From positions 75,775 to 109,054 of the forward strand of contig JAPUER010000075.1 of assembly GCA_027492485.1 (NCBI GenBank): a DNA stretch of 33,280 bases, given 5' to 3'. Shown one piece after another: positions 125 through 21,178 of the stretch. Made by a program: the position numbers and the translations under genes. This stretch comes from Betaproteobacteria bacterium. GTDB taxonomy: Bacteria > Pseudomonadota > Gammaproteobacteria > Burkholderiales > Casimicrobiaceae. The notes under the pieces were generated by a model. That model made no database searches. It saw only the letters and a program-made list of their open reading frames with translations, and was not told the DNA's origin. Within the stretch, counting starts at the first letter, position 1. The number at the start of each line of letters is the position of its first letter.

Positions 125-240
125 AGCTTTTGGCACTGGTGCGCTTGCCGTTAAGGCTTGCAGCCTATTTTTTTCAATAGTCGACTTAACGTTATTTAGG
201 CCATTTTGTCCATTGTCTACGGGCGATATGGCCAAAAGCT
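125..240. repeat. 116-bp palindromic element, copy 1
   Basis: First of three equal-length copies in the window. The ends are a perfect 10-bp inverted repeat, AGCTTTTGGC at 125-134 and GCCAAAAGCT at 231-240. The palindrome AGTCGACT (179-186) lies exactly at the centre. By hand count 24 of 58 arm positions are self-complementary, mostly at the ends and centre. It ends 34 nt before the nadD start, so it could affect nadD expression. No flanking target duplication is evident. Confidence 0.7.
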
Positions 241-274
241 GCTGGTGGCGCCGGCGTCCACGTAGACTGCCCGC

Positions 275-1009
275 ATGACCGCCGCGCCCGCACCGTCGCC
301 TGCCGTCCCGCCGGATTTGCCGCCCGAGCGGCGGCCGCTGGCGCTGTTCGGCGGCACCTTCGACCCGGTGCACTGCGGGCATCTGCGCGTCGCCCTCGAT
401 ACCGCGATGGCGCTCGGGCTGCCGGAAGTGCGGCTGATTCCGTCGAAAACCCCCGTGCACCGCCAGGCGCCCGGCGCCAGCGAGCGCGACCGGCTGACCA
501 TGCTGCGGCTGGCGGTGGCCACCGACGCCAGCGGCACCCTCGCCGTCGACGACCGCGAGCTGCACCGCAACACGCCGAGCTACACGGTGCTGACGCTAGA
601 TTCGTTGCGCGCCGAGTTCCCGGCGCGGCCGCTGCTGTGGCTGATCGGCGTCGACGCCTTCCTGCAACTGACGAGCTGGCACCAATGGCCGCGACTGTTC
701 GAGCTGGCGCATTTCGTGGTGCTCAACCGACCCGGTTTTGCGCAGGCCGAGGTGCTGTCGGCAGCGCTGGCGCCGGTCTGGCAGGGCCGGCTGACGACCG
801 ACGCCGCGGCGCTCGCCACCCGCACGCACGGGCTCGTCTACCTGCACAGGGTGGCGCCGCAGGCGATCTCGGCGACGGAAATTCGCAACAAAATCGCCGC
901 CGGCGCCAGTGATGAAGCGCTCACTTCGTTGCTCCCCGCGCCGGTGCTGTCCTATATTCGTGCTCATCAGCTTTACCTGCCGGAGCACCCCCCGCTTGCG
1001 CCTCAATAA
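275..1009 (+). CDS. nadD: nicotinate-nucleotide adenylyltransferase
   Basis: NadD joins nicotinate mononucleotide to the AMP moiety of ATP, giving deamido-NAD in cytosolic NAD synthesis. The nucleotidyltransferase signature GGTFDPVHCGH sits at residues 26-36, with the two histidines that bind ATP phosphates. The second family motif is ISATEIR near residue 200, before a short helical C-terminus. The length, 244 residues, is slightly above the usual 210-220 because of a proline/alanine-rich N-terminus of about 20 residues. A later start is therefore possible, but no better codon is obvious. No clear ribosome binding site precedes the ATG. The gene overlaps rsfS by 14 nt, the usual nadD-rsfS coupling. 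Confidence 0.95.
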   Translation: MTAAPAPSPAVPPDLPPERRPLALFGGTFDPVHCGHLRVALDTAMALGLPEVRLIPSKTPVHRQAPGASERDRLTMLRLAVATDASGTLAVDDRELHRNTPSYTVLTLDSLRAEFPARPLLWLIGVDAFLQLTSWHQWPRLFELAHFVVLNRPGFAQAEVLSAALAPVWQGRLTTDAAALATRTHGLVYLHRVAPQAISATEIRNKIAAGASDEALTSLLPAPVLSYIRAHQLYLPEHPPLAPQ

Positions 1010-1667
1010 AGTTCAGAAAGCCGCCGTCGCCGCCCTCGAAGACATCAAGGCCCGCGACATCATTGTCCTCGACACCCGCACGCTGACGGCGATCTACGAC
1101 ACGCTGATCATCGCCACCGCGGAAAGCGCCCGCCAGACCAAGGCGCTGGCGCGCAACGTGCACGACAAGGTCAAGGCCGCCGGCGGCCACGTGATCTCGA
1201 CCGAAGGCGAAGAGGGCGGCGAATGGGTGCTGGTGGATTGCGGCGACATGGTGGTGCACATCATGCTGCCAACCACGCGGGCGCTGTATAACCTGGAAGA
1301 ACTGTGGACGCCGCCGACCCCGGCCAAGCCGCCGAAAGCGGTCAAACCCGCGGCACCGGAGGCGACGACACCGAAAGCCGGCACAGCGAAGAAGCCTGCC
1401 GCCAAGAAACCGGCTGCGGAGAAACCGGCTGCGAAGAAACCAGCTGCAAAGAAACCGGCTGCGAAGAAACCAGCGGCGAAAAGGCCGGCTGCAAAGAAAC
1501 CCGCAGCCAAGGCCCCGGCCGCGCGCAAGCCCGCGGCGAAAAAACCTGCGGCCAAGAAGCCGGCCGCCAAGGCCGTCAGCAAAGTCGCCGCGAAGAAACC
1601 TGTTGCCCGCAAGCCGGCGGCGAAAAGGCCCGCCGCCCGACCGGCAAGCAAAAAGAAAATCGCCTGA
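996..1667 (+). CDS. rsfS: ribosomal silencing factor RsfS with a long Lys/Ala/Pro tail
   Basis: RsfS binds ribosomal protein L14 (uL14) and blocks joining of the ribosomal subunits when nutrients are scarce. The family fold covers about residues 1-110: the N-terminal helix VQKAAVAALEDIKARDI, then DTRTLTAIYDTLIIATAES, then the closing segment WVLVDCGDMVVHIM and YNLEELW. I chose the TTG at 996 because the encoded MRLNKVQ fits the family start; the frame stays open to a GTG at 909, but that stretch lies inside nadD. The product is 223 residues against the usual 105-135. The extra roughly 100 residues are near-perfect repeats of KPAAKK with no acidic residues, like the tails of histone H1-like bacterial proteins. 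The tail may bind RNA or DNA; that is inference. Confidence 0.9.
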   Translation: MRLNKVQKAAVAALEDIKARDIIVLDTRTLTAIYDTLIIATAESARQTKALARNVHDKVKAAGGHVISTEGEEGGEWVLVDCGDMVVHIMLPTTRALYNLEELWTPPTPAKPPKAVKPAAPEATTPKAGTAKKPAAKKPAAEKPAAKKPAAKKPAAKKPAAKRPAAKKPAAKAPAARKPAAKKPAAKKPAAKAVSKVAAKKPVARKPAAKRPAARPASKKKIA

Positions 1668-1695
1668 GACTGCGGCAATCCACGCCGCCTGACCG

Positions 1696-2166
1696 GTGAA
1701 GCTAAAGCTGATCGCGCTCGGCCACCACCAGCCGGGCTGGGTGGACGACGCGGTGGCCGATTACGCCAAGCGCTTTCCACCCGAATGGCCGTTCGAGCTG
1801 GCCGAGCTGAAGCCCAAAAAGCGCGCCGCCAACCGCAGCACCGAGGTCGTGCTCGCCGGCGAGGCCGAACGCATCCGCGCCCAGATCCCGCGACAGGCGC
1901 TGACCATCGCCCTCGACGAACGCGGCGAACAGTTCACCACCCGCGCGCTCGCCGAGCATCTGCAGGGTTGGGCACGCGAGGCGCCGGCAGCCGCCTTCGT
2001 CATCGGCAGCGCCGACGGGCTCGATGCGTCGTTCAAGGCCGGCGCACACGTTCGCCTCGGGCTGTCGAAGCTGACGCTGCCGCACGGTCTGGCCCGCATC
2101 TTTGTGGTCGAACAGCTCTATCGTGCGATAAGCTTGCTGTCTGGTCACCCTTATCACCGCGATTAG
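1696..2166 (+). CDS. rlmH: 23S rRNA (pseudouridine1915-N3)-methyltransferase
   Basis: RlmH is a SPOUT-fold methyltransferase that methylates pseudouridine 1915 in helix 69 of 23S rRNA in assembled 70S ribosomes. The 156-residue length and the whole pattern match the family: N-terminal MKLKLIALG, the SAM-binding knot with [10 protein letters not shown], then [22 protein letters not shown] and the invariant C-terminus HPYHRD. The start is GTG at 1696; it gives the canonical first residues. It follows rsfS by 28 nt and precedes maf by 28 nt, so the three are probably co-transcribed. Confidence 0.97.
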
Positions 2167-2194
2167 GGCAAGCCGATCCGGTTTGCTGCGCTGC

Positions 2195-2803
2195 ATGAAC
2201 GAAATCTATCTGGCCTCCAGGAGTCCGCGCCGCCTCGAGTTGCTGCAACAGATGGGCATCGCTTGCAAGACGGTCTTGCTGCGCGAAGACAACAACCGCG
2301 CGCGCGACGTCGACGAGACGCCGCTGGCCAGCGAAAACCCGTTCATTTACGTCGAACGCATGGCCAAGATGAAGGCCGAGATCGGTGTGCTGCGCTCCCG
2401 CCAGCGCGCGCTGCCGTCGATGCCTCTGCTCGGCGCCGACACCATTGTGGTGTTCAACGGCACCATCTTCGGCAAGCCGGTCGACGCCGCCGATGCCAAA
2501 CGCATGCTGAAGCTCTTGTCGGGCACCCGGCACGAAGTGCTCACCTGCGTCGCGGTGACCGACGGCAAACAAATGCTGCACGACACCTGCGTGTCGCGGG
2601 TGCGCTTCCGCGATCTGGTCGAATCCGAAATCGACGCCTACATCGCCAGCGGCGAGCCGATGGGCAAGGCCGGCGCCTACGCCATTCAGGGCCTGGGCGG
2701 CATCTTTGTCGAACGGCTGGAAGGCAGCTACTCCGGCGTGATGGGATTACCGCTTTTTGAAACTTCGATGCTACTCTCGCGTTTCGGCATCAAAGTTCTG
2801 TAG
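2195..2803 (+). CDS. maf: Maf family nucleotide pyrophosphatase
   Basis: Maf proteins hydrolyse non-canonical or pyrimidine nucleoside triphosphates to monophosphates in the cytosol. The 202-residue product has the N-terminal signature ASRSPRR, the metal-binding segment LLGADTIVV, and the C-terminal YAIQGLGG and SYSGVMGLP motifs. ATG at 2195 begins at [13 protein letters not shown], the usual family start; an in-frame TTG at 2183 would add only four residues. Which substrate subgroup it belongs to (YhdE dTTP/UTP type or YceF m7GTP type) I would leave open. It lies between rlmH and rng, the common beta-proteobacterial order. Confidence 0.93.
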
Positions 2804-2911
2804 ATCGCCGCACGCGTCGCCGGCTGTTGCGGCGACCGAGTTTCCGGTGCTTTCGCCATCGCCGCATGCGCTGCGGTGGCGAAAACAACAGAAATTCTTT
2901 GGGGTCAGCCG

Positions 2912-4381
2912 ATGGCTGAGGAAATCCTCATCAACGTCACGCCGCAGGAGACGCGGGTGGCGGTGCTCGATCACGGTGTGATCGACGAGCTGCACATCGA
3001 GCGCGCCAGCCATCGCGGGCTGGTCGGCAACATCTATCTCGGTCGCGTCGCCCGCGTGCTGCCCGGCATGCAAAGCGCGTTCATCGAGGTGGGGCTGGAG
3101 CGTGCGGCCTTCCTACACGTCGCCGACATCTGGGAATACCGGCAGGCACAGCACACGCCGGAGGCGACGCCGAAGCCGATCGAAAAGCTGCTGCACGAAG
3201 GCCAGCCGCTGATCGTGCAGGTGATCAAGGACCCGATCGGTAGCAAGGGCGCGCGGCTGTCGACGCAGATCTCGCTGGCCGGACGGCTGCTGGTGCACCT
3301 GCCGCAGGATTCGCACATCGGCATCTCGCAGCGCATCGAGGACGAAGCCGAACGCACGCTGCTGAAGGAAACGCTGACCAAACTGCTGCCCGACGACGAA
3401 ACCCGCGGCGGCTTCATCATCCGCACCATGGCCGAAAAGGCCACCGAGCGCGACCTTGCCCGCGACGTCGAATACCTCACCAAGTTGTGGGCGGACGTGC
3501 AGAGCCGCGCCAAATCCACCCGCGCCGGCACCCTGGTGCATCAGGACCTGACGCTGGCCGAACGGGTTCTGCGCGATTTTTCCAGCGAGAACACGCGCCG
3601 CGTGCTGGTCGATTCGGTCGAGGCGCACAAGGCGATGATCGACTTCGCGCTGCGCTACGCCCCAGCGGTGACCGACCACATCCAGCTGCACGAAGGCATG
3701 CGCCCGCTATTCGACATGTACGGCGTCGAGCAGGAGATCGAGCGCGCGCTGCATCGCCGCGTCGATCTCAAGAGCGGCGGCTACCTGATCATCGACCAGA
3801 CCGAAGCGCTGACCACCATCGACGTCAACACCGGCGGCTTCGTCGGCGTGCGTTCGTTCGACGACACCATCTTCAAGACCAATCTGGAAGCGGCGCAGAC
3901 CATCGCGCGGCAGCTCCGCCTGCGCAACCTCGGCGGCATCATCATCATCGATTTCATCGACATGGACCTGCCCGAGCACCGCGCCGCCGTACTCGACGCG
4001 CTCAACACCGCAATTGCCAGCGACCGCACGCGGCTCACGGTGAACGGTTTCACCCATCTCGGCCTGGTCGAGATGACCCGCAAGCGCACCCGCGAATCGC
4101 TCGCCCACATCCTCTGCGAACCGTGCCCCACCTGCAACGGCCGCGGCGAAATCAAGACCGCGCAGACCGTCTGCTACGAAATCCTGCGCGAAGTGATGCG
4201 CGAAGCCAAACAGTTCAATCCACGCGAGTTCCGCATCCTCGCCGCGCAAAGCGTGATCGACCTGCTGCTCGACGACGAATCCGCCACACTGGCCCACCTG
4301 TCCGACGACATCGGCAAGCCGGTGTCGCTACAGGTGGAAGCCGGATATTCGCAGGAGCAGTACGACATCGTGCTGCTTTGA
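2912..4381 (+). CDS. rng: ribonuclease G
   Basis: RNase G is an endonuclease that matures the 5' end of 16S rRNA and cuts some mRNAs; it is the short paralogue of RNase E. The product is 489 residues, the same length as the Escherichia coli enzyme. An S1-like RNA-binding region is visible at residues 30-120 (GNIYLGRVARVLPGMQSAFIE). The catalytic core carries the metal-binding aspartate segment TTIDVNTGGFVG, then IIIDFIDM, and the Zn-link cysteines CEPCPTCNGRG near the end. I chose ATG 2912 (MAEEILINV) because it matches family N-termini; an in-frame GTG at 2876 adds 12 residues without family support. The large RNase E C-terminal scaffold domain is absent. Confidence 0.95.
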   Translation: MAEEILINVTPQETRVAVLDHGVIDELHIERASHRGLVGNIYLGRVARVLPGMQSAFIEVGLERAAFLHVADIWEYRQAQHTPEATPKPIEKLLHEGQPLIVQVIKDPIGSKGARLSTQISLAGRLLVHLPQDSHIGISQRIEDEAERTLLKETLTKLLPDDETRGGFIIRTMAEKATERDLARDVEYLTKLWADVQSRAKSTRAGTLVHQDLTLAERVLRDFSSENTRRVLVDSVEAHKAMIDFALRYAPAVTDHIQLHEGMRPLFDMYGVEQEIERALHRRVDLKSGGYLIIDQTEALTTIDVNTGGFVGVRSFDDTIFKTNLEAAQTIARQLRLRNLGGIIIIDFIDMDLPEHRAAVLDALNTAIASDRTRLTVNGFTHLGLVEMTRKRTRESLAHILCEPCPTCNGRGEIKTAQTVCYEILREVMREAKQFNPREFRILAAQSVIDLLLDDESATLAHLSDDIGKPVSLQVEAGYSQEQYDIVLL

Positions 4382-4403
4382 GTTCACCGTTCGTGGTGAG
4401 CTT

Positions 4404-4469
4404 GTCGAACCATGAACCCGTGGGAAATCGTAGGGTGGGTTTCAACCCACCGCAAATTGATACCAACCA
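4404..4469 (+). repeat. 66-bp repeat, left copy (inverted partner at 5183-5248)
   Basis: It begins GTCGAACCAT, contains CGTAGGGTG and ends CAAATTGATACCAACCA. The reverse complement of 5183-5248 has the same length and, by hand count, matches at 53 of 66 positions without gaps. The pair flanks the GNAT gene in inverted orientation. Confidence 0.7.
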
Positions 4470-4532
4470 CATTTGTTCTCCGCAAAGATGGTTGACTTGC
4501 CGCCAGCGCGCTCCATGGCCGCGCGGGGCCAG

Positions 4533-4582
4533 TCCCTTTCTTTGCGTCGCCAAAGAAAGGAACCAAAGAAAGGCGACCCCAG
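4533..4582. repeat. dispersed palindromic spacer element (CTTTCTTTG/CAAAGAAAG type)
   Basis: CCTTTCTTTG at 4533-4542 pairs with CAAAGAAAGG at 4551-4560 around CGTCGC plus two flanking bases. AACCAAAGAAAGGCGACCCC follows. This resembles a known intergenic sequence type in beta- and gamma-proteobacteria whose open frames are often annotated as spurious short proteins. The assignment is from recall of the pattern, not from a search. Confidence 0.45.
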
Positions 4583-4771
4583 GGATTCGCCTGTTTCCTG
4601 CGGTGCTCGCGGCAGGCGGGCGGCGCAGAAATCGCCCGAAAGTTGCGCTGACGCGCAACCGGTGGGCTCATGGTGCGGGTCTACGACCGCGCGTTGCTCC
4701 GCTCCTCGGGGCGAATCCATGGGGACCCGCCGAACCGAAATTTGATCGCTTCGCGATTGGAACGACGGGAA

Positions 4772-4791
4772 CCCGGATGCGAGCATCCGGG
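4772..4791 (-). terminator. hairpin downstream of the GNAT gene
   Basis: CCCGGATG (4772-4779) pairs perfectly with CATCCGGG (4784-4791) around the tetraloop CGAG. It lies 8 nt beyond the stop codon of the - strand GNAT gene. There is no clear T-run on either side, so it may be a weak terminator or a transcript-stabilising hairpin. Confidence 0.4.
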
Positions 4792-4799
4792 CTCCGCGA

Positions 4800-5087: not shown

Positions 5088-5182
5088 AGGTTCAGATTGG
5101 AAAAGGTTGTGGCCTTTACGGCCTGAGTTTTGCGCTGAGGTGCGATCCTACCGCAACGTGCTTTTGATCCGATCGCGAGACT

Positions 5183-7326: not shown

Positions 7327-7355
7327 CCGCTGGGGAGGCGAGCCCGCCGCCGCGG

Positions 7356-7817
7356 TCAGGGCGCGACCGTCGCGTCCGCCAGCAAGGCCTTGAGCGCGGC
7401 GACCTGCCAGGCATGCTCCGGCGCGAACGCATCGAGGTCGTTCACCGCGTAACCGCCGTAGCCGTAGACGGTGGAGTAGGCCGCGTAGTCGGCGGCCTCC
7501 AGCGCCTTGCCGGCGAGCGCCTTGGCCACCGCGTAAGTCGCCGACACGGCGGAATGTTGCGAGCCATCGATCGACGGCGAACCGCGGTGGCGGTTGGCGA
7601 GCGCCGCGCCTTCGTCGGCGGCCTGCGCCAGCGTGGTGTCATCGACGCGGCCTTCGACGTAGCCCTTCAGCACGTCGAGCAGCGCGATCGCGCGGCTATC
7701 TTCCAGTCGGTGCCGCACGCGTTCGGCGCAGGCGTGCGCGAAGGCGTAGCGCAGCGGGCGGCGCCCGGCGGCGGCGAGGTCTTGATCGGCAAAAAGCGTG
7801 TTGAGTTCCGGGTTCAT
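7356..7817 (-). CDS. small all-alpha protein, possibly Imm5-like
   Basis: Product of 153 residues, rich in alanine and predicted largely helical. Segments such as LRYAFAHACAERVRHRLED, a repeated alanine-rich helix (AYAVAKALAGKALEAADYA) and AWQVAALKALLAD recall the Imm5 family of putative immunity proteins. That is a weak, pattern-level match and no toxin gene lies next to it. I prefer ATG 7817 (MNPELNTLF); the frame extends to a start at 7853 with a poor N-terminus. No signal peptide is seen. It converges on the cytochrome genes and is separated from pepE by a 116-bp palindromic element. Confidence 0.6.
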   Translation of the reverse strand: MNPELNTLFADQDLAAAGRRPLRYAFAHACAERVRHRLEDSRAIALLDVLKGYVEGRVDDTTLAQAADEGAALANRHRGSPSIDGSQHSAVSATYAVAKALAGKALEAADYAAYSTVYGYGGYAVNDLDAFAPEHAWQVAALKALLADATVAP

Positions 7818-7895
7818 TTTGCGAGCATCGCACGGCGGCACCGTGCCCGGCAAGCCGGCCCTCGTCGTGGCGGATAATGACGATCTGGCGTTAGC

Positions 7896-8011
7896 AGCTT
7901 TTCGACGAAACGCGCATAGGATATGGGCTCAGCGCGATAAATCACCAATAGTCGACTTTTTCTGTTTTGTGCGTCTTTGCCCAATGTTATTGCGCATTTC
8001 AGCCAAAAGCC
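7896..8011. repeat. 116-bp palindromic element, copy 2
   Basis: It begins AGCTTTTCG and ends GCCAAAAGCC, with AGTCGACT (7950-7957) exactly central. It is the most symmetrical copy: by hand count 35 of 58 arm positions are self-complementary, including GAAA.GCGCA and TGGGC blocks on both sides. The right end overlaps the last 13 nt of pepE, so the element supplies the stop codon and final residues of that gene. Confidence 0.75.
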
Positions 8012-8709
8012 AATGCGCTGCCAGGCGCGACGTCGGCCGGCTCCTGCCCGGCGCGGAACCACTTGCCGGGGAAGGGGCCGTGCAGCGTGATGTCGTTGCC
8101 GCGCACGCGCAGCCAGTCGCCCTCGGGCAGGCCGAACACCGGCATCGTCGGATTGATGTGCAGAAACTCCGCCAGCCGCTGGTCGCGCGTCTCGCCCATC
8201 CAGCCTTCGGGCACCGCGTTGGTGTAGTGCGCGTTCAACTGGAAGTCGATCACGCCGAGCGCGTCGAGCCCAGCCGGATCGATGATCGGCATGTCGTTGC
8301 TGGTGCGGATGGTCGGCGCGCAGATGCCGCTGCCGGCGCTCCAACCAACGTAGGGTTTGCCGCCAAGAATTTCATTGCGCAGCGGCACGATCAGCTCCTT
8401 GCGGCGCAGATGGTGCAGCAAATTGAAGGTGTTGCCGCCGTTGACCATGATCGCATCGCTCTCGGCCAGCGCCGCCACCGGGTCCTTGAAGTGATGGATC
8501 GCGGTGATCTCCACGCCTTCGTCGCGCAGCGCCTGCAGGCCGAGGCGCACATTCTTCGCGGTCGAATCCCACACGATGGTCACGCTCGCGAACGGGATCA
8601 GCACCACTTTCTTCGCGCCACCCAGCGTCTCGCGGATGGCGTCAACCGCATGTTCAAGATAGCCACGGCCGGGCATGCGGGAGTTGGACAGGAGCAGTAG
8701 ATTTTTCAT
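7999..8709 (-). CDS. pepE: peptidase E (alpha-aspartyl dipeptidase, family S51)
   Basis: PepE is a cytosolic serine peptidase that splits dipeptides with N-terminal aspartate. The 236-residue length is close to the E. coli enzyme (229). The nucleophile elbow GWSAGSG places the serine at 124; aspartate 139 (SNDMP) and histidine 161 (NAHYTN) complete the triad. This is the same spacing as Ser120, Asp135 and His157 in the E. coli family member. It starts 13 nt after the iclR stop, so the two form an operon. The last three codons fall in the end of a palindromic element, so the C-terminus may have been altered. The related S51 cyanophycinases are longer. Confidence 0.92.
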   Translation of the reverse strand: MKNLLLLSNSRMPGRGYLEHAVDAIRETLGGAKKVVLIPFASVTIVWDSTAKNVRLGLQALRDEGVEITAIHHFKDPVAALAESDAIMVNGGNTFNLLHHLRRKELIVPLRNEILGGKPYVGWSAGSGICAPTIRTSNDMPIIDPAGLDALGVIDFQLNAHYTNAVPEGWMGETRDQRLAEFLHINPTMPVFGLPEGDWLRVRGNDITLHGPFPGKWFRAGQEPADVAPGSALAFG

Positions 8710-12904: not shown

Positions 12905-15900
12905 ATGCCCGTTCCGCCTCGCACTGTTCCGCTCTCCCGTCGCAAGAAAAGTGCCGTTCCACCGGCGCCGCTCACGTCGCAAAACACCGACATCCGCATC
13001 CGCGGGGCGCGGCAGAACAATCTCAAGAATCTCGATCTCGACATTCATACCGGCGAGCTGACCGTTGTCACCGGGGTCTCCGGTTCGGGCAAGTCATCGC
13101 TGGTGTTCGATACGCTCTACGCCGAGGGACAGCGGCGCTATGTCGAGACGTTTTCGCCTTATGCGCGGCAGTTCCTCGACCGCATGGACAAGCCGCAGGT
13201 GGATCGCATCGAGGGCATCCCGCCGGCGATCGCGATCGACCAGACCAACCCGGTGCGCACCTCGCGCTCCACCGTCGGCACCATGACCGAGGTGAACGAT
13301 CACCTGAAGCTGATGTTCGCGCGCTTCGCTGCGTTGCACTGTCAGGGCTGCGGCCAGCGCGTGCAGCGCGACACGCCGGATTCGATCTACGTCGACCTCA
13401 AGCTGCGTGCCGCAAAAGCGGACGATCCGCGGGTGGCGATCACCTTCCCGGTGACGGTGCCGGAGAACTTCAAGGAAGCCGAGGTCGAACAGTTTCTGTC
13501 GGCGCAGGGCTACACGCGCGTGCACCAGCACCATGGCGCCACGCTGCATGTGGTGCAAGATCGCATGCGCATCGGCACGGCCGAGAAGGCGCGCGTGATG
13601 GAGGCGCTGGAGGCCGCGCTGCTGCATGGCAAAGGAAGGGTGAATGTGTTCGTGCTCGACCCTCCCCCAGCGGTGGCGGAAGATGTTGGATTAAACCCTC
13701 CCCCAGCGGGGGAGGGCAGGGTGGGGGAAGGTAGTCAGGCGCGCCACCATCCCCCACCCCAGCCCTCCCCCGCTGGGGGAGGGAGCGGTTTGGTGTGGCG
13801 CTACTCCGCCGACCTGCACTGCGCTGCCTGCGACATCACTTACAGCGACCCGCATCCGTCGTCGTTTTCGTTCAACAACCCGCTCGGCGCCTGCGAGACC
13901 TGCCGTGGCTTCGGGCGCGTCATCGGTGTCGATCTAGGTCTGGTCATTCCCGACGAGGGCAAGACGCTCGGCGAGGGCGCCATCAAGCCGTGGCAAACGG
14001 CGAGCTTCAAGGAATGTCAGGACGACTTGAAGAAGTACATGACGGCGCGCAACATCCCGATGGATGTGCCGTTCCGCGATCTTGGCCCGAACGACCGCCG
14101 CTATGTGATCGAGGGCGACGATACCTGGCGCTCGTGGGAGAAGGACGCCAACAAGAAGTGGTACGGCGTGATGCGCTTCTTCGACTGGCTGGAGTCGAAG
14201 GCGTACAAGATGCACATCCGCGTGCTGCTGTCGAAGTACCGCGCCTACACGCCGTGCAGCGCCTGCGAAGGCGCGCGGTTGAAACCGACCTCGATCAACT
14301 TCCGGCTTGGCTCGAAGGCGAATGCGGACGCCGTGCTGCCAGCTACGATGCGCTTTTCGCCGCGCCATTTCAAATTCACGCGCAACACGCTGGAAGCGCT
14401 GCCCGGTCTCACCATTCATGATCTGATGCTGCTGCCGATCGAGCGGCTACGGCAGTTCTTCACAACACTGGATTTCGCCGCGTCGGGCACGGTGATGGAC
14501 GAGGCCGGGGAACTGGTACTTGGCGAAGTGCGCTCGCGGCTCGGCTATCTGTGCGACGTGGGCCTGGGCTATCTGACGCTGGATCGACAGAGCCGCTCGC
14601 TGTCGGGCGGTGAGGTGCAACGCATCAACCTGACCACGGCGCTCGGCACCTCGCTGACCAACACGCTGTTCGTGCTCGACGAACCCTCGATCGGGCTGCA
14701 TCCGCGCGACATGACGCGCATCATCGGCGTGATGCAGCGGCTGAAGGGTGCGGGCAATACGCTGGTCGTGGTGGAGCACGATCCGCAGATCATGTTCGCC
14801 GCCGACCGCTTGCTCGACGTCGGCCCCGGCCCCGGCGAGCGTGGCGGCAACATCATCTTCGACGGTGCGCCGCGCGAACTGGCAAGCACCAGGGACTCGC
14901 GGACGGCGGCTTACCTGCTGGGGCGGGAGCGGCTCCATCGGAAGCGGCGGCCTGTCTGGCCCTCCCCCCTCGTGGGGGAGGGTGCCCGAAGGGCGGGAGA
15001 GGGGGATGTTGCAACACGCAGTGGCCGTCCCCCTCTCCCCCAACCCCTCCCCCACGAGGGGGGAGGGGAGTATTGCATCACCCTCACCGGCGCCCGCGAG
15101 AACAACCTCAAGGGCATCGACGTACAGTTTCCATTGCGCGGGCTGGTCACGGTCACCGGCGTCTCCGGCTCCGGCAAATCGACGCTGGTGCAGGACATTC
15201 TGGTGCCGGCGCTATACAAGGCCAAGGGCAAGACGACCGATGCGCCGGGCACTTACGACCTGCTGCTCGGCCATCAGAGTATCGACGACGTGGTGTTCGT
15301 CGACCAGTCGCCGATCGGCAAGTCCTCGCGCTCGAATCCGGCGAGCTTCGTCGGCGCCTTCGATGCGATCCGTGCGATCTACGCAAAAGCGGCGCTGGCC
15401 GTTGAACGTGGCTACACGCAGGGCACCTTCAGTTTCAATGCGGGCAATGGTCGCTGCCCAACCTGCTCCGGCTCCGGCTTCGAGCATGTCGAAATGCAGT
15501 TCCTGTCGGACGTCTACCTGCGCTGCCCCGATTGCGATGGTACGCGCTTCCGCGCCGAAGTGCGCGAGGTCAAGGTCAACGACAACAGCATCAGCGATGT
15601 GCTAACGCTGACCGTCAGCGAAGCCATCGCCTTCTTCGCCGACATCAAGGGCGGCGCCGAAGTGCTGCGCACCTTGCAACCGCTTGCAGACGTGGGGCTT
15701 GATTACGTGCGTCTGGGGCAGCCGGTGCCCACGCTGTCGGGCGGCGAAGCGCAGCGCCTGAAGCTCGCCGGGCATCTTGCCGAGAGCGCGGGGCCGGATG
15801 GCGGCCGGCCGATCGCCATGCTGCCGCGGCGCATCAAACCGGAAGACCCGGCCACGCCGCGCGGCAAACTGTTCGTGTTCGACGAGCCAACCACCGGCCT

Positions 15901-18900
15901 GCATTTCGACGATATCGCCAAGCTGCTCGGTGCTTTCGACAAACTGCTCGACGCCGGTCATTCGATCGTGGTGATCGAGCACAACCTCGACGTGATCAAC
16001 GCCAGCGACTGGCTGATCGATCTCGGCCCCGAAGGCGGCGACGCCGGCGGCGAGGTGCTGTTCACCGGCACGCCCGATGCCATCCGCCGCGACCCGAAGT
16101 CGCACACCGGCAAGGCACTCAACGATTACGACCGCGATCTGGCGGCGCTCGCGGAATCAACCAAGGTGCTGAAAGCCGCCGAGCCGCGCGGGGTCTATCT
16201 GCATCGCGCGACAGCACGCAACATCAGTGTGCTGCACGCGCGCGAGCACAATCTGAGGAACGTGAGTGTGGAGATCCCGGCCAGGGGCTTCACGGTCATC
16301 ACCGGGCCGTCGGGCTCGGGCAAATCGACACTCGCCTTCGACATCATTTTCAACGAAGGCCAGCGCCGTTACCTTGAATCGCTCAACGCCTACGCGCGGC
16401 AATTCGTGCAGCCGTCCGCACGGCCCGATGTCGATGCGATACACGGTATTCCGCCGACGGTGGCGATCGAGCAGCGCGTCTCGCGCGGCGGCCGCAAGTC
16501 CACGGTGGCAACGCTGACCGAGATCTATCATTTCCTGCGCCTGCTGTGGATGAAGCTCGGCACCCAATATTGCCCGAACTGCGACGTGCCGATCGAGCCG
16601 CAATCGCTCGATGCCATCGCGGCGCGGGTGATGAAGGACTGCAAAGGCAAACACGCGACCATCCTCGCGCCGCTGGTGGTCAACCGCAAAGGGCTTTACA
16701 CCGATCTGGCGAAATGGGCGAAGGGCAAGGGCTTCGCACATCTGCGCGTGGATGGCGAGCTGATCCCGGTCGCGCCGTGGCCGCGGCTGGACCGCTTTGC
16801 CGAACACAATATCGAATTGCCGATCGGCACGGTTGAAGTAAGCGCCAAACGCGAGAAGGAACTGCGCGCGGCGCTGGTCTCGGGCCTCGACTACGGCAAG
16901 GGCGTGGTGCAGGTGCTGTCGTGGCGGAAGGGCAGTGCGGAGGCCGAGTTGACGGTGTTCTCTACCAAGCGTGCCTGTCCGAGCTGCGGCACCAGCTTTG
17001 CCGAACTTGATCCGCGGCTGTTTTCGTTCAACAGCAAACATGGCTGGTGCCCGAGCTGCCAGGGCACCGGCGAGAGCGTGAAGGGCTTCAAGCGCGACGA
17101 CCGCGTCAGCGAGGAATTTGCCGATCGCGAGCTTGATGCCTTCCTCGATGCCAAAGAAGCCTTCGAGCTTTGCACGTCGTGCGAGGGTGCGCGGCTGAAC
17201 CCGGTGGCGCGTAATGTGCGCTTCCGCGAGCAGGGCATTCATGCCGTCGTTGCGCAGTCGGTGATCGACGTTGAGCGCTTCGTGAACGCGTTGAAGCTCT
17301 CGCCGCGCGAGGAAGAAATCGCGCGCGACATTCTGGTTGAGGTGAAGTCGCGGCTTGCCTTCCTGCAGGAAGTAGGTCTGGGTTATCTCACGCTGGATCG
17401 CTCGGCACCCACATTGTCGGGCGGCGAAGCGCAACGCATTCGCCTTGCGGCGCAGCTTGGCTCGAACTTGCAAGGCGTCGCCTATGTGCTCGACGAGCCG
17501 ACCATCGGGCTGCATGCGCGCGACAATCGCATCCTGCTCGACACACTGGAGAAGCTGCAGGCCAAGGGCAACACGCTGGTGGTCGTCGAGCACGACGAAG
17601 ACACCATCAAGCGCGCCCATCACATCATCGACCTCGGGCCGGGTGCCGGCGTGCGCGGCGGCGAGATCGTCGCCGAGGGCACGGCCAGCGAATTGAAGGC
17701 GAATCCGAAATCGATTACGGGCAAGTTTCTCAAGCAGCCGATCAGGCATCCGCTGCATGCACGGCCGCCCCTTCCTCCGCGTGGCGGAGGGGCGCGGGAG
17801 AAAGCGAAGGCGCTGAAGGGTGGGCGACGGGTTCGTGCTGGCGTGCTTCGCCCACCCCAACCCTCCCCCGCTGCGGGAGGGAGTCTATGGCTGGACGTTG
17901 AGGGGGCCAATCTGCACAACCTGAAGAACGTCTCGACCTCCGTGCCGCTGTCGCGCCTGTCGGTCGTCACTGGCGTCTCGGGTTCAGGCAAGTCGACGCT
18001 GGCGCGCGAGGTACTGCACGAGAACCTGCAGGCGCTAGTCAGTGCACGCAACACGCGCAAGAAGGCACCTGCGCTGGTGGGCTGCAAATCGCTGACTGGT
18101 TGGCAAGACGTGGACCGCGTGCTGGAGGTGGATCAGACGCCGATCGGCAAGACGCCGCGCTCCTGCCCGGCCACTTACATCGGCTTCTGGGACAACATCC
18201 GCAAGCTCTACGCCGAGACCTCGGAGGCGAAGATGCGCGGCTACGGTCCCGGCCGTTTCTCGTTCAATGCGGCCGGCGGTCGTTGCGATGCCTGTGCCGG
18301 CGCCGGCGTGGTCACCGTGGAGATGAATTTCCTGCCCGACGTGAAGTTGCCCTGCGACGTCTGCAACGGCTCGCGCTTCAACAGCGAAACGCTGGCCGTC
18401 CTCTGGCGCGACAAATCGATCGGCGATGTGCTGGCGATGGAGGTAGACGATGCGGTGCCGTTCTTTGCCTCGATGCCGTCGATCCATCATCCGTTGAAGC
18501 TGATGCAGGATGTGGGCCTGGGTTACCTCACGCTCGGCCAGCCGAGCCCGACGCTCTCGGGCGGCGAGGCGCAACGCATCAAGCTGGTGACCGAACTGGC
18601 GAAGGTGCGCACCGGCGCGCTTCCCGTCCGCGGCGCCCGCGCCAGCAAAGCGTCACACACGCTCTACGTGCTCGACGAGCCCACGGTTGGCCTGCACATG
18701 GCCGACGTGGAAAAACTGATCCATGTGCTGCACCGCCTGGTGGATGCCGGCAATACGGTGATCCTGATCGAGCACAACCTCGACCTGATCGCCGAGGCCG
18801 ACTGGATCATCGACATGGGGCCGGAAGGCGGCACCGGCGGCGGCACCGTGGTCGTCGCCGGCGACGTGCCAACACTACTCAAGGCAAAGGCGAAATCGCA

Positions 18901-18937
18901 TACGGGGCGGGTGCTGGCGGAGTTCCTGCCTTCGTAG
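12905..18937 (+). CDS. uvrA: double-length UvrA: tandem UvrA dimer in one chain
   Basis: UvrA is the damage-sensing ATPase of nucleotide excision repair and works as a dimer. This 2010-residue chain holds two complete UvrA units (about 1-1080 and 1085-2010) and four ABC ATPase domains. Walker A loops begin at residues 57, 752, 1134 and 1690 (GVSGSGKS or GPSGSGKS). Signatures LSGGE are at 566, 944, 1504 and 1884. Each Walker B reads F/Y-V-x-DEPxxGLH. Zinc-type CxxC pairs are present in both units (CAACD and CETC, CPTC and CPDC, CPSC and CPSC, CDAC and CDVC). E. coli UvrA is 940 residues. I chose ATG 12905; an in-frame TTG at 12890 adds five residues. Three palindromic insertions are translated in frame. 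I believe long UvrA paralogues occur in other Burkholderiales; whether this one acts in repair is unknown. Confidence 0.93.
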   Translation: MPVPPRTVPLSRRKKSAVPPAPLTSQNTDIRIRGARQNNLKNLDLDIHTGELTVVTGVSGSGKSSLVFDTLYAEGQRRYVETFSPYARQFLDRMDKPQVDRIEGIPPAIAIDQTNPVRTSRSTVGTMTEVNDHLKLMFARFAALHCQGCGQRVQRDTPDSIYVDLKLRAAKADDPRVAITFPVTVPENFKEAEVEQFLSAQGYTRVHQHHGATLHVVQDRMRIGTAEKARVMEALEAALLHGKGRVNVFVLDPPPAVAEDVGLNPPPAGEGRVGEGSQARHHPPPQPSPAGGGSGLVWRYSADLHCAACDITYSDPHPSSFSFNNPLGACETCRGFGRVIGVDLGLVIPDEGKTLGEGAIKPWQTASFKECQDDLKKYMTARNIPMDVPFRDLGPNDRRYVIEGDDTWRSWEKDANKKWYGVMRFFDWLESKAYKMHIRVLLSKYRAYTPCSACEGARLKPTSINFRLGSKANADAVLPATMRFSPRHFKFTRNTLEALPGLTIHDLMLLPIERLRQFFTTLDFAASGTVMDEAGELVLGEVRSRLGYLCDVGLGYLTLDRQSRSLSGGEVQRINLTTALGTSLTNTLFVLDEPSIGLHPRDMTRIIGVMQRLKGAGNTLVVVEHDPQIMFAADRLLDVGPGPGERGGNIIFDGAPRELASTRDSRTAAYLLGRERLHRKRRPVWPSPLVGEGARRAGEGDVATRSGRPPLPQPLPHEGGGEYCITLTGARENNLKGIDVQFPLRGLVTVTGVSGSGKSTLVQDILVPALYKAKGKTTDAPGTYDLLLGHQSIDDVVFVDQSPIGKSSRSNPASFVGAFDAIRAIYAKAALAVERGYTQGTFSFNAGNGRCPTCSGSGFEHVEMQFLSDVYLRCPDCDGTRFRAEVREVKVNDNSISDVLTLTVSEAIAFFADIKGGAEVLRTLQPLADVGLDYVRLGQPVPTLSGGEAQRLKLAGHLAESAGPDGGRPIAMLPRRIKPEDPATPRGKLFVFDEPTTGLHFDDIAKLLGAFDKLLDAGHSIVVIEHNLDVINASDWLIDLGPEGGDAGGEVLFTGTPDAIRRDPKSHTGKALNDYDRDLAALAESTKVLKAAEPRGVYLHRATARNISVLHAREHNLRNVSVEIPARGFTVITGPSGSGKSTLAFDIIFNEGQRRYLESLNAYARQFVQPSARPDVDAIHGIPPTVAIEQRVSRGGRKSTVATLTEIYHFLRLLWMKLGTQYCPNCDVPIEPQSLDAIAARVMKDCKGKHATILAPLVVNRKGLYTDLAKWAKGKGFAHLRVDGELIPVAPWPRLDRFAEHNIELPIGTVEVSAKREKELRAALVSGLDYGKGVVQVLSWRKGSAEAELTVFSTKRACPSCGTSFAELDPRLFSFNSKHGWCPSCQGTGESVKGFKRDDRVSEEFADRELDAFLDAKEAFELCTSCEGARLNPVARNVRFREQGIHAVVAQSVIDVERFVNALKLSPREEEIARDILVEVKSRLAFLQEVGLGYLTLDRSAPTLSGGEAQRIRLAAQLGSNLQGVAYVLDEPTIGLHARDNRILLDTLEKLQAKGNTLVVVEHDEDTIKRAHHIIDLGPGAGVRGGEIVAEGTASELKANPKSITGKFLKQPIRHPLHARPPLPPRGGGAREKAKALKGGRRVRAGVLRPPQPSPAAGGSLWLDVEGANLHNLKNVSTSVPLSRLSVVTGVSGSGKSTLAREVLHENLQALVSARNTRKKAPALVGCKSLTGWQDVDRVLEVDQTPIGKTPRSCPATYIGFWDNIRKLYAETSEAKMRGYGPGRFSFNAAGGRCDACAGAGVVTVEMNFLPDVKLPCDVCNGSRFNSETLAVLWRDKSIGDVLAMEVDDAVPFFASMPSIHHPLKLMQDVGLGYLTLGQPSPTLSGGEAQRIKLVTELAKVRTGALPVRGARASKASHTLYVLDEPTVGLHMADVEKLIHVLHRLVDAGNTVILIEHNLDLIAEADWIIDMGPEGGTGGGTVVVAGDVPTLLKAKAKSHTGRVLAEFLPS
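13661..13786. repeat. in-frame REP pair inside uvrA, insertion 1
   Basis: Two palindromes of CCCTCCCCC/GGGGGAGGG type lie at 13696-13716 (loop AGC) and 13763-13783 (loop GCT), in opposite orientation. The facing arms GGCAGGGTGGGGG and CCCCCACCCCAGCC can pair as well, giving a BIME-like unit. It is translated as about 42 Pro/Gly-rich residues (253-294), directly before the first zinc-binding CxxC of ATPase domain 1. Confidence 0.75.
14959..15070. repeat. in-frame REP pair inside uvrA, insertion 2
   Basis: CCCTCCCCC and GGGGGAGGG arms around CTCGT (14960-14982) are matched by an inverted copy containing CCCCACGAGGGG at the other end. The insert encodes about 38 residues such as PSPLVGEGARRAGEG and PLPQPLPHEGGG (residues 685-722). 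It lies in the linker between ATPase domains 1 and 2. Confidence 0.75.
17764..17884. repeat. in-frame REP pair inside uvrA, insertion 3
   Basis: CCCTTCCTCCGC facing GCGGAGGGG, then about 80 nt later CCCTCCCCCGC facing GCGGGAGGG, form another inverted pair. It is translated as about 41 residues (1620-1661) including RPPLPPRGGG and PPQPSPAAGG. It lies between ATPase domains 3 and 4, the position equivalent to insertion 2 in the other UvrA half. Confidence 0.7.
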
Positions 18938-18975
18938 TTCGCGCACCTGAGCAATCGTCGCTACGCCAGTGCTTG

Positions 18976-18995
18976 CCATTTTGGCGCCATAATGG
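18976..18995. promoter_or_regulatory. operator palindrome of the first toxin-antitoxin module
   Basis: CCATTTTGGC and GCCATAATGG form a 20-bp palindrome with a single mismatched pair. It lies just before a consensus -10, TATAAT, at 18999-19004; a TTGCCA at 18973-18978 could serve as a distant -35. This is the expected place for binding of the ribbon-helix-helix antitoxin to its own promoter. Confidence 0.6.
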
Positions 18996-18998
18996 ATT

Positions 18999-19004
18999 TA
19001 TAAT
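18999..19004 (+). promoter_or_regulatory. -10 element of the first toxin-antitoxin operon
   Basis: Exact TATAAT. Transcription would begin near 19011, which removes the ATG at 19003 as a start and supports ATG 19048 for the antitoxin. Confidence 0.55.
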
Positions 19005-19047
19005 GTCACCCGGCGCCAATACGGCTCCATTTTTGCTCCATCCGCCA

Positions 19048-19395
19048 ATGCCCAATCTTTCCATCAAGGACGTTCCCGAATCCCTCGCCGAGGCGCTTCG
19101 CCAGCGTGCCGCCCGCAACCACCGGTCGCTGCAGGGTGAGCTGATGTCGATCATTGAGTCGGCAGCAGAAGAAACGAAGCACCCTGTCGGCTCGCTTGAT
19201 GATCCAGCTGCGCTCGCGCGGGGCGAGAGCATCATGGGCTTCGGCGACGCAGGACGACCAATCATTCGACGTGGCTGGAAGTCAGTCGAGGAAGTCGCGG
19301 CTTCGCTGCGGGCGCGTTTTCCTGACGGCGCGCCCGACGCGACTAACGCGCCGCTCGGCGTCGATATCATTCGCGCCGAACGGGACAGTCGATGA
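19048..19395 (+). CDS. FitA-like ribbon-helix-helix antitoxin
   Basis: Product of 115 residues. Residues 1-42 (MPNLSIKDVPESLAEALRQR, then RNHRSLQGELMSIIESAAEE) have the short beta strand and two helices of Arc/FitA-type ribbon-helix-helix antitoxins. These bind DNA as dimers and wrap the partner toxin with the C-terminal part. The rest carries an unusually long linker with GFGDAGRPIIRRGWKSVEEVAASLRARF, presumably toxin-binding. It overlaps the PIN toxin gene by ATGA. The upstream palindrome at 18976-18995 is the likely autoregulatory site. An in-frame ATG at 19003 lies within the -10 element and was not used. Confidence 0.82.
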   Translation: MPNLSIKDVPESLAEALRQRAARNHRSLQGELMSIIESAAEETKHPVGSLDDPAALARGESIMGFGDAGRPIIRRGWKSVEEVAASLRARFPDGAPDATNAPLGVDIIRAERDSR

Positions 19396-19832
19396 GCGCG
19401 CCGCCCAGACAACTCTATGTAGCGGAGCCACCTGCCAAGTACCTCGTGCGCCTGCCCGTTGTAGTTGATTGCAGCGTCATCGCCGGTCTGGTCTTTCAGG
19501 AGCACTGGCAAACCGAAGCACAAGCCCGCATCGCTGGCCGGACATTGCACGCCCCCCATCTACTGGACGCCGAAGTTGCGCAAGTTGCCGTCAAGAAGCA
19601 CCGCGGCGGCGCCAGCGAGCTCGCGGCGGCGGGTCTCGATGAATATTCGGCAATGATCATCCTGACGCACCCGGTCAAAGCCGCGGATGCGTTCGAGCTT
19701 GCCGTCCGCTACAACCTGTCCGCCTACGACGCCGCCTACCTTTGGCTGGCGGCCATGCTGAAAGCCCCGCTCGCAACGTTCGACGCAAAGCTCGGCGAGG
19801 CCGCGCGGCTGCATCTTTCCTCGCTTTCCTGA
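19392..19832 (+). CDS. PIN-domain toxin (VapC/FitB-like ribonuclease)
   Basis: The 146-residue product has the acidic residues of a PIN-domain endoribonuclease: Asp26 (VVVDCSV), Glu61 (LLDAEVAQV), Asp113 (SAYDAAYL) and Asp131 (ATFDAKL). These bind the metal ions used to cut RNA, often tRNA in this family. A roughly 20-residue extension (MSAPPRQLYVAEPPAKYLVR) precedes the first PIN strand, so a start nearer the VVVD strand is conceivable, although the 4-nt overlap with the antitoxin favours ATG 19392. It is the toxin partner of the preceding gene. Confidence 0.85.
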   Translation: MSAPPRQLYVAEPPAKYLVRLPVVVDCSVIAGLVFQEHWQTEAQARIAGRTLHAPHLLDAEVAQVAVKKHRGGASELAAAGLDEYSAMIILTHPVKAADAFELAVRYNLSAYDAAYLWLAAMLKAPLATFDAKLGEAARLHLSSLS

Positions 19833-19861
19833 GGCCGCTAGATGGTGCTTTGTTTGCGCAT

Positions 19862-19893
19862 AATGTGTATAATGAATTTACTTTATACACATT
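19862..19893. promoter_or_regulatory. operator of the second toxin-antitoxin module
   Basis: AATGTGTATAA (19862-19872) and TTATACACATT (19883-19893) form a perfect 11-bp inverted repeat with a 10-nt spacer. The left arm overlaps a consensus -10, TATAAT, at 19868-19873, so a bound antitoxin would block RNA polymerase. It differs entirely in sequence from the operator of the first module. Confidence 0.7.
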
Positions 19894-19903
19894 TAGTACT
19901 TTC

Positions 19904-20197
19904 ATGCGAACCAACATCGATATCGACGACGGCTTGATGGACGCGGCCATGCGTGCCGGCCCTTATTCCACCAAGCGCGAAGCGGTCGAGGCGGGCTTGC
20001 AGTTGCTCGCCCGCAAGGCGGCCTACCGCGACATCCTTGCCCTTCGCGGCAAGTTGCAATGGGATGACGGGCCTGCGCCGACCGGCATCGCGCGGACAAC
20101 GGCCGCCCTGACGGCGCACAGCCCCGCGCCGCCGCCCTACGACAAACCAGCGTCGGGTGCGGCAAAAGCAGCGGCCAAAAAGGCTTCGTCGAAGTGA
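19904..20197 (+). CDS. vapB: VapB-type antitoxin with extended tail
   Basis: The first 55 residues match the type II VapB antitoxin family: MRTNIDIDDGLMDAAMRAG, then STKREAVEAGLQLLARK and the closing ALRGKLQWDDG, which usually ends the protein. Here a further 40 or so residues rich in Ala, Pro and Lys (ending AAKAAAKKASSK) follow, giving 97 in all. VapB forms the DNA-binding part of the VapBC complex and neutralises the toxin. The gene begins 10 nt after the operator inverted repeat and overlaps vapC by GTGA. Confidence 0.87.
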   Translation: MRTNIDIDDGLMDAAMRAGPYSTKREAVEAGLQLLARKAAYRDILALRGKLQWDDGPAPTGIARTTAALTAHSPAPPPYDKPASGAAKAAAKKASSK

Positions 20198-20595
20198 TCC
20201 TCGTCGATTCGAGCGTCTGGATCGACTTCTTTCGCGGTCGTGAGACGGCGGTGGTCGAGCAGCTTTCTGCGCTGCTGGACGAAGCGGCGGCGCCGATCGC
20301 CGTCGCCGACCTTGCGCTGTTCGAAGTGCTGCGCGGCTTCCGGCACGAGCATGACTACGTGGCTGCCGACCGCGTCATGCGCGCACTGGATATCGTTGCG
20401 ATCGGTGGCGATGCGATGTGCCGCGCCGCCGCGCAGCACTACCGCGAACTGCGCGCGCATGGCGTCACTATCGCCAGCCCGATCGACGTGCTGCAGGCCA
20501 CCTACTGCATCGAACACAACCACGCCCTGCTGCACAACGATCGCGACTTTGACGCGATGGAGACGCTACGCGGACTGAAAGTCTGGCGGCACTGA
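20194..20595 (+). CDS. vapC: VapC-type PIN-domain toxin
   Basis: The 133-residue product begins directly with the PIN strand MILVDSSVWIDFF. The expected acidic residues are Asp5, Glu44 (LFEVLRG), Asp98 (SPIDVLQA) and Asp116 or Asp118 (HNDRDFD). It is the length and pattern of VapC toxins, which cut specific RNAs when freed from VapB. The start is GTG 20194, overlapping the antitoxin stop by 4 nt. It belongs to a different PIN subgroup from the toxin at 19392, so the two modules did not arise by recent duplication. Confidence 0.9.
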   Translation: MILVDSSVWIDFFRGRETAVVEQLSALLDEAAAPIAVADLALFEVLRGFRHEHDYVAADRVMRALDIVAIGGDAMCRAAAQHYRELRAHGVTIASPIDVLQATYCIEHNHALLHNDRDFDAMETLRGLKVWRH

Positions 20596-20631
20596 CGCGT
20601 CTGCGCCGCGCCGATGGTTTGACGCGCAATG

Positions 20632-20826
20632 TCAGGGCGTTTTTTTGTTTGGTAGTGGCGCCGGCGGTGCCTGCCAGTCGAACCAGTCGTCGCCGAAAAA
20701 CTCCACCGGATGCTGCGTGCGCGAGGTGCCGTTGCCGCAGGCCATCGCGTCGGCAGCGCAATATTTGTCGCAGCCCCAGCAATTGCGTTCGGGGTGGGCA
20801 GGATGGATCGGGAATTTTTTTGCCAT
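20632..20826 (-). CDS. small cysteine-rich protein, DUF3079-like
   Basis: Product of 64 residues. The core MAKKFPIHPAHPERNCWGCD, followed by KYCAADAMACGNG and RTQHPVEFFGDDWFDW, matches my recollection of the DUF3079 family, a small protein of unknown function common in beta- and gamma-proteobacteria. Four cysteines (CWGC, KYC, MAC) suggest a metal site. ATG 20826 is chosen because MAKKFP is the family start; the frame stays open to 20892 with an implausible N-terminus. A C-terminal tail of about 14 residues (QAPPAPLPNKKTP) is extra. It converges on vapC, with a T-run at 20640-20646 in the 36-bp gap. Confidence 0.75.
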   Translation of the reverse strand: MAKKFPIHPAHPERNCWGCDKYCAADAMACGNGTSRTQHPVEFFGDDWFDWQAPPAPLPNKKTP

Positions 20827-21178
20827 CGTCGCCGCAGTCGGGCACGGCCACGCTGCGTTCGCGCATTGTGTCGGGCCGCGCGGAGCCATCATTGATCGTG
20901 GTCAAACGCGGTCGCGAACGAACGGCGAAACGGCCCACGCCACAATCGGCCGGCAGTATCGGCTTTTTGTCGAAAGCGGCATTCGCTATGGGCTAACAGG
21001 CATGTTTTGCCGATAGTCGACTTCGGTACTTTTGTCGCGCCATGCCCTATTCAGTAGCCGTTTTTGTGCAAAAGCCGCTGACCGTCGCCGTGTTTTCATT
21101 TTCACATCGGCGCCAGCGCTTTGCGGCAAGGCATGACGCCAGCCACCGCGTCGCAACCACCGCCGGGCAGCGACCGGC
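20827..21178. other. gene-free spacer holding palindromic element copy 3
   Basis: Between the 5' end of the DUF3079-like gene and the 3' end of the EcsC-family gene. Apart from the 116-bp element at 20961-21076 I see no gene, terminator or recognisable promoter. Confidence 0.55.
20961..21076. repeat. 116-bp palindromic element, copy 3
   Basis: It begins GGCTTTTTG and ends GCAAAAGCC; AGTCGACT (21015-21022) is exactly central. By hand count 26 of 58 arm positions are self-complementary, with shared GGCTTTT, CGGC and GGGC blocks. It aligns to copy 2 without gaps over the full length, including TATGGGCT at the same offset and ATAGTCGACTT at the centre. Confidence 0.72.

What the first reader, a model, noticed from the sequence alone, without database searches (positions are those of the whole stretch)
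125..21076. A length-invariant 116-bp palindromic element, three diverged copies
Seen directly: 125-240, 7896-8011 and 20961-21076 are each 116 bp and align end to end without gaps. All begin RGCTTTT, end AAAAGCY, and carry ATAGTCGACTT so that AGTCGACT is exactly central. TATGGGCT (TTAAGGCT in copy 1) sits at the same offset. Between-copy identity is low outside these blocks (about 60% for copies 2 and 3 by hand), yet no indel has occurred. Arm self-complementarity is 24, 35 and 26 of 58. A decaying mobile element should collect indels; constant length with diverged sequence suggests selection on spacing or on folding. It recalls Correia-type elements in outline but not in sequence. I do not know a named family that fits.
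Basis: seen in the sequence. Interest (0 to 1): 0.78.

Follow-up and report, generated by a model that had tools for sequence, protein, structure and literature searches.

The report
Genus-wide 122-bp symmetric intergenic DNA sites
Hundreds of 122-base mirror-symmetric DNA sites sit between genes around the chromosomes of one group of uncultured bacteria; many keep their place and their key bases between species without any sign of folding, so they look like docking sites for an unknown DNA-binding machine rather than dead mobile DNA.

Summary
The three copies are real and belong to a large family: a strict pattern finds 206 copies in this genome and none with the reversed control; 400 kb taken without regard to them holds 30, so about 300 per genome. 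True edges are 122 bp (WWYRGCTTTT...AAAAGCYRWW) around a central TCGA. Length is not invariant: each half is 60 or 61 bp. Copies show no base-pairing signal. They are intergenic, near gene 3' ends, and often orthologous between species (6 of 7; 12 of 14 ybeY-corC gaps, but only 4 of 16 ybaB-recR gaps). At orthologous sites free positions agree at 0.33 and motif positions at 0.83. No target-site duplication; RAYT genes carry GTAG-REPs instead. Detected in 16 of 17 genomes of the genus and none of 102 relatives outside it. Inner sub-sites come in dialects that do not match the species tree. Best reading: a genus-specific, chromosome-wide protein docking site under selection in place. The protein is unknown; gyrase is a likeness without support from GyrA.

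The parts
122..243 (.). copy 1, dialect A, 122 bp, dyad between 182 and 183; 31 bp upstream of nadD (275-1009 +)
   Evidence: PWM 74 bits; gene CTP_transf_like
179..186 (.). copy 1 central AGTCGACT
7893..8014 (.). copy 2, dialect A, 122 bp, dyad between 7953 and 7954; overlaps the last 16 bp of a Peptidase_S51 gene (7999-8709 -), 75 bp from the next called gene (7356-7817 -)
   Evidence: PWM 115 bits
7950..7957 (.). copy 2 central AGTCGACT
20958..21079 (.). copy 3, dialect A, 122 bp, dyad between 21018 and 21019; between convergent PIN (20194-20595 +) and EcsC (21179-21970 -) genes
   Evidence: PWM 106 bits
21015..21022 (.). copy 3 central AGTCGACT

Best explanation
Each element is one large two-fold-symmetric DNA site made of two 60/61-bp half-sites facing each other across a central TCGA. 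Shown: symmetric consensus, near-rigid half-length, no base-pairing signal, intergenic placement near gene ends, frequent positional conservation between species, motif positions held while free positions drift, species-wide dialects of the inner sub-site. Inferred: a dimeric or higher-order DNA-binding complex contacts both halves of intact duplex DNA (base-specific at GCTTTT, the inner block and the centre; partly by DNA shape at the AA/TT and CA/TG steps) and acts chromosome-wide at gene ends, most likely in chromosome organisation or DNA topology. The complex would be specific to this genus, and its specificity has changed between species, perhaps more than once. Its identity is not known.
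For: 206 strict copies, control 0. Symmetric PWMs with 85-90 bits. In all held genus sequence 202 of 212 scan maxima above 8 bits exceed 35 (top 125, overlapping loci not merged); shuffled DNA never exceeded -35. No Watson-Crick signal: within-copy complementarity 29.2 of 58 against 28.5 between different copies in G000 (35 copies), 30.3 against 30.7 in G012 (42); RNAalifold 0 pairs over 86 copies. The strongest well-estimated dependencies within a half are between neighbours, AA or TT at 48-49 and CA or TG at 3-4. Intergenic: 0 of 167 inside genes, 2 partly; 0 inside genes in 30 unselected G000 elements and in the 25 of 27 G005 elements that could be classed. Place kept: 6 of the 7 G000 copies (of 43) whose neighbour gene fell in the G005 stretches have an element there; in ybeY-corC 12 of 14 genomes with a gap score 11 bits or more, above all 1000 shuffles of each gap; downstream of gyrA over 80 bits in 4 of 13 genus loci. 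At 7 G000-G005 orthologous sites high-information positions agree at 0.83, free positions at 0.33, flanks at 0.38; non-orthologous pairs 0.76 and 0.29. No near-identical copies: best pair 0.63-0.69 within four genomes. Genus-limited: 16 of 17 against 0 of 102; exact pattern in 85k species only in 7 MAGs, each matched to a genus genome by a contig length.
Against: No binding protein identified; no binding, expression or chromosome-conformation data. Turnover exists: ybaB-recR holds the element in only 4 of 16 genomes; L025's place is empty in G005. High-information positions agree only slightly better at orthologous than at non-orthologous sites (0.83 and 0.76), so replacement by another copy cannot be told from conservation at single sites. 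Solitary halves occur. In the larger sets some longer-range dependencies among columns 3-7, 24, 29 and 36 appear; they are what 1-bp register shifts of 60-bp halves would give, but I did not model them. Spacing along the G005 chromosome is random (74 copies, CV 0.88, p 0.16), which gives no direct support to an architectural role. The sets used for searches were mostly fetched by the fixed-length pattern.
Confidence: 0.5

Rival explanations
1. A non-autonomous mobile palindrome (MITE, REPIN or Correia/ERIC type), old and still copied or overwritten in place by a trans-acting recombinase, which keeps species-wide dialects.
For: Symmetric inverted pair, intergenic, hundreds of copies, solitary halves, gains or losses at some loci, species-wide dialects.
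Against: No target-site duplication in 180 copies, no near-identical copies, shared places between species with near-saturated synonymous sites, few low-scoring relics (10 of 212 scan maxima above 8 bits are below 35, in loci mostly fetched by the strict pattern), no excess near RAYT genes (2 of 20 loci hold an element, one more a half-site), whose flanks carry GTAG-type repeats in the 8 loci looked at; G009 has no Y1_Tnp match yet 26 strand matches to the model.
Confidence: 0.25
2. Strong gyrase (type II topoisomerase) wrapping site: dyad at the cleavage point, two phased arms wrapped on GyrA C-terminal domains, placed at gene ends to absorb positive supercoils.
For: E. coli gyrase motif is two-fold and 130 bp with 47-bp phased arms and gyrase favours regions downstream of transcription units (PMC6379681, passages). 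Here 122 bp, dyad centre, some A/T phasing, bias to gene 3' ends and convergent gaps. Only one type IIA A-subunit (GyrA) was found in 11 of 11 genus genomes tested.
Against: Peak period here 9.75 bp (in dialect A an 8-bp peak is nearly as high), there 10.75 bp. Predicted curvature is close to that of dinucleotide shuffles: A slightly less bent (p 0.02), B slightly more (p 0.04). The GyrA C-terminal domain is highly conserved in the genus (0.93 over 78 pairs) and so does not follow the dialects. A single A-subunit is also found in 11 of 16 other genomes of the family, which lack the element.
Confidence: 0.1
3. Operator of a very large regulon: a transcription factor binding symmetric sites to control neighbouring genes.
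For: Intergenic, base-specific blocks, some copies between divergent genes (33 of 162 with orientation).
Against: Nearer gene 3' ends (median 28 bp) than starts (median 103 bp), many between convergent genes (46 of 162), some between adjacent co-directional genes such as ybeY-corC; 122 bp is far larger than usual operators (recalled).
Confidence: 0.1
4. A structured RNA or bidirectional terminator encoded between genes.
For: Palindromic look; close to gene 3' ends.
Against: No consensus pairs, no covariation, no Rfam match in the window at gathering thresholds.
Confidence: 0.03

Closest known systems
REPIN / REP-BIME with RAYT
   Same: Two inverted units with a spacer, intergenic, hundreds of copies, symmetric consensus
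   Different: REPINs pair with common compensatory changes and lie by RAYT genes (PMC3116915, passages); here no covariation and no RAYT link, copies far more diverged, places often shared between species
E. coli gyrase motif / strong gyrase sites
   Same: About 120-130 bp, two-fold, some A/T phasing, gene-end bias
   Different: Peak period 9.75 against 10.75 bp; base-specific dialects; GyrA does not co-vary
Correia elements, ERIC (recalled)
   Same: 100-150 bp imperfect palindromes in intergenic DNA
   Different: No target-site duplication, no pairing signal; sequences not compared by a tool
DNA uptake sequence dialects (recalled)
   Same: Genome-wide sites with species dialects
   Different: Short contiguous words, not a 122-bp symmetric site

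Membership tests
REP/REPIN | lies beside a RAYT gene | tested here: not met
   2 of 20 RAYT loci (67.5 kb in all) hold an element and one a half-site; flanks of the 8 loci looked at carry GTAG-type repeats
REP/REPIN | arms pair, compensatory changes common | tested here: not met
MITE / Correia | target-site duplication | tested here: not met
   180 copies; exact edge matches of 2-9 bp at or near control levels
MITE / Correia | recently copied, near-identical members | tested here: not met
   best pairwise identity 0.66, 0.66, 0.69 and 0.63 among the 35, 42, 19 and 12 copies held of four genomes
Gyrase strong site | two-fold span of about 130 bp | tested here: met
   122 bp, dyad at TCGA
Gyrase strong site | 10.75-bp phased G/C in the arms | tested here: not met
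   peak 9.75 bp; curvature close to shuffles
Gyrase strong site | cleavage or binding by gyrase | not testable with these tools
   needs Topo-Seq
Structured RNA (Rfam) | match to a known family | tested here: not met
   0 matches in the window at gathering thresholds

The most novel reading that the evidence does not exclude
A genus-specific system of about 300 bivalent 122-bp docking sites at gene ends, read on intact duplex DNA by an unknown protein complex whose recognition sequence has switched across the genome, probably more than once, while many sites stayed in place: a bacterial counterpart of boundary sites with protein-site co-evolution.
Probability: 0.3. Interest if true: 0.88.

Novelty: new variant of a known kind. 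Interest (0 to 1): 0.74.

Why it matters
Dispersed palindromes in bacteria are usually explained as mobile hairpins. Here is a large family that shows symmetry without pairing, signs of selection in place, a half-length limited almost to two values, and dialects that change over a whole genome. It makes testable how hundreds of sites and their reader can change together, and points to an unrecognised chromosome-wide DNA-binding system in uncultured Burkholderiales.

Tried and rejected
Terminus exclusion: one search seemed to leave 1.95-3.0 Mb of G005 empty; one search showed this was a cut in the listing. Hairpin, cruciform or RNA. Mobile element. Regular spacing. Extra HU/IHF: 2-4 copies in the genus as in relatives. 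Gyrase co-evolution. Literature: four searches aimed at the family and one at gyrase; their listings named nothing that describes it. Of PMC6379681, PMC12393610 and PMC3116915 I read passages only. Viral contigs: 0 exact matches.

Errors and limits of mine: searches used a PWM misaligned by two bases between strands and are replaced. The CorC figure for G000-G005 (0.96 four-fold identity with 67.6% protein identity), and likely that for G012-G003, are wrong-frame alignments and are not used. My note put the ybeY-corC count at 10 of 14; by score it is 12 of 14. The permutation test ignores autocorrelation and is liberal. The A/B classes were trained on the same copies. In one search the pair L002/L081 is not adjacent (gene 3.2 kb from the element). 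Some z-values are infinite because the shuffles had no spread.
Full report
What is there. The three window copies were read directly and aligned without gaps. The window is G000:C75:75775-109054 of a 4.12-Mb genome in 83 contigs. The 11-mer ATAGTCGACTT gives 34 matches against 1 for the reversed word. The three-block pattern with up to 3 mismatches gives 206 copies and 0 in the control.

Anatomy. In 400 kb of G000 (contigs C16 and C53, taken without regard to the elements) there are 30 paired elements, 16 of 122 bp, 13 of 121 and 1 of 120, plus 6 unpaired half hits, and no half-site hit in shuffled DNA. That extrapolates to about 300 per genome, so the strict pattern sees about two thirds. Edge to dyad is 61 bp in 45 halves and 60 in 15; the two halves of a copy vary as if independently (16, 13 and 1 pairs). 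In 20 stretches of G005, some chosen near known copies, there are 27 pairs: 19 of 122, 5 of 121, 3 of 120; re-anchored blocks give 16, 7 and 3, and one of 129. Across all loci then held, mostly fetched by the fixed-length pattern, 156 of 175 were 122 bp.

Not a fold. Within-copy complementarity equals that between different copies (29.2 against 28.5 of 58 in G000, 35 copies; 30.3 against 30.7 in G012, 42 copies). Within half-sites the strongest well-estimated dependencies are between neighbouring bases, AA or TT at 48-49 and CA or TG at 3-4; weaker longer-range ones link columns 3-7, 24, 29 and 36, as 1-bp register shifts would, without a marked gain in Watson-Crick pairs. RNAalifold over 86 copies predicts no pair. 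This points to reading of duplex DNA, partly by shape. The A/T profile of a half has a peak period of 9.75 bp in both dialects, with an 8-bp peak nearly as high in A; predicted curvature stays close to dinucleotide shuffles, A slightly less bent and B slightly more.

Placement. Of 167 copies with enough flank, 83 lie between tandem, 46 between convergent and 33 between divergent genes, 0 inside, 2 partly in a gene, 3 at an edge; median distance 28 bp to a gene 3' end and 103 bp to a start (genes called by my own codon-usage script, first run on the window, where it misses some ORFs). The unselected G000 sample agrees: 14 tandem, 11 convergent, 5 divergent, while gaps of at least 122 bp are 75, 25 and 38. 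Along G005 the spacing of 74 listed copies is random.

Kept in place. Among 17 locus pairs sharing a homologous gene I compared 15 between G000 and other genomes, 12 distinct G000 sites (left out: L008/L066, the same copy as L039, and L043/L089); by the coordinates the element lies within 500 bp of that gene in the other genome in 14. These loci were fetched for holding elements. Less biased: of 43 G000 copies, 7 have a neighbour gene in the G005 stretches and 6 of these have the element there. In the ybeY-corC gap 12 of 14 genus genomes with a gap score 11 bits or more and exceed all 1000 shuffles of their own gap; G010 (-2) also exceeds its shuffles, G002 (-30) does not; two genomes have no gap. 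In ybaB-recR only 4 of 16 have it. Downstream of gyrA it scores over 80 bits in G000, G005, G012 and G004 and 31 in G011, of 13 genus loci. Four-fold sites of neighbour genes between G000 and G012 agree at 0.50-0.69, near saturation. At 7 orthologous G000-G005 sites motif positions agree at 0.83, free positions at 0.33, against 0.76 and 0.29 for non-orthologous pairs. So the motif is held while the rest has drifted; replacement by another copy would look alike at a single site.

Dialects and spread. The inner block is GCCCAT..ATGGGC (A) or CGACC..GGTCG (B). G000 has 27 AA, 4 BB, 2 AB and 2 unclear; G012 39 BB, 2 AB, 1 unclear; G008 19 BB; G003 10 BB, 1 AB, 1 unclear. G013 shows a third form, seen by eye. 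G007, G011 and G002 keep outer and inner parts with other centres, seen by eye in 22 loci, with 125, 68 and 33 strand matches to the model at E up to 1. A tree of RecR, CorC and GyrA puts G012 with G000 and G005 (support 94) and G003/G008 beside G001/G015 (99), of which only a few, A-like copies were seen; so B is not one clade, or both forms are ancestral. The sequence-only model finds the family in 16 of 17 genus genomes (1-2 matches only in G002, G010 and G011) and none of 102 others. An exact pattern scan of 85k species returned 72 stretches in 7 MAGs by record prefix, each sharing a contig length with a genus genome; the tool may leave out the window's own records. Viral contigs gave none.

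What it is not. RAYT genes are present, but of 20 neighbourhoods 2 hold an element and one a half-site, and the flanks of the 8 that I looked at carry GTAG-type repeats. No target-site duplication was found. Gyrase sites are the nearest functional likeness, and a single type IIA A-subunit was found in 11 of 11 genus genomes, but the period differs and the GyrA C-terminal domain is more conserved than the N-terminal part within the genus (0.93 and 0.88).

Conclusion. The best-supported account is a two-fold-symmetric docking site for an unidentified, genus-specific DNA-binding complex, selected in place near gene ends. The structural claims are shown; the protein and the role are inferred.

Noticed in passing
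12905-18937: A double-length UvrA-like protein (2010 aa, five UvrA-matching stretches) with proline/glycine-rich in-frame inserts that look like translated palindromic repeats.
   Followed up: no
genus g1 and relatives: Only one PF00521 match (GyrA) in 11 of 11 genus genomes and in 11 of 16 other genomes of the family: topoisomerase IV may be missing; many are incomplete MAGs.
   Followed up: partly
L257, L259, L260, L263, L267, L273, L274, L275: GTAG-type palindromic repeats beside RAYT genes, a separate repeat system in the same genomes.
   Followed up: partly
L179, L187, L189, L191 (ybaB-recR gaps): Other palindromic repeats fill the gap where G000 has the element, judged by eye.
   Followed up: no
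L121 and L116: The element is 108 of 116 identical between G003 and G008 although four-fold sites of a gene on these loci agree at 0.60.
   Followed up: no
19904-20595: A PIN-domain gene (20194-20595) behind a small ORF, possibly a toxin-antitoxin pair.
   Followed up: no
L134:9431, L140:14199, L142:19741, G000:C16:5104: Solitary half-elements whose match stops at or just after the central AGTCGA.
   Followed up: partly
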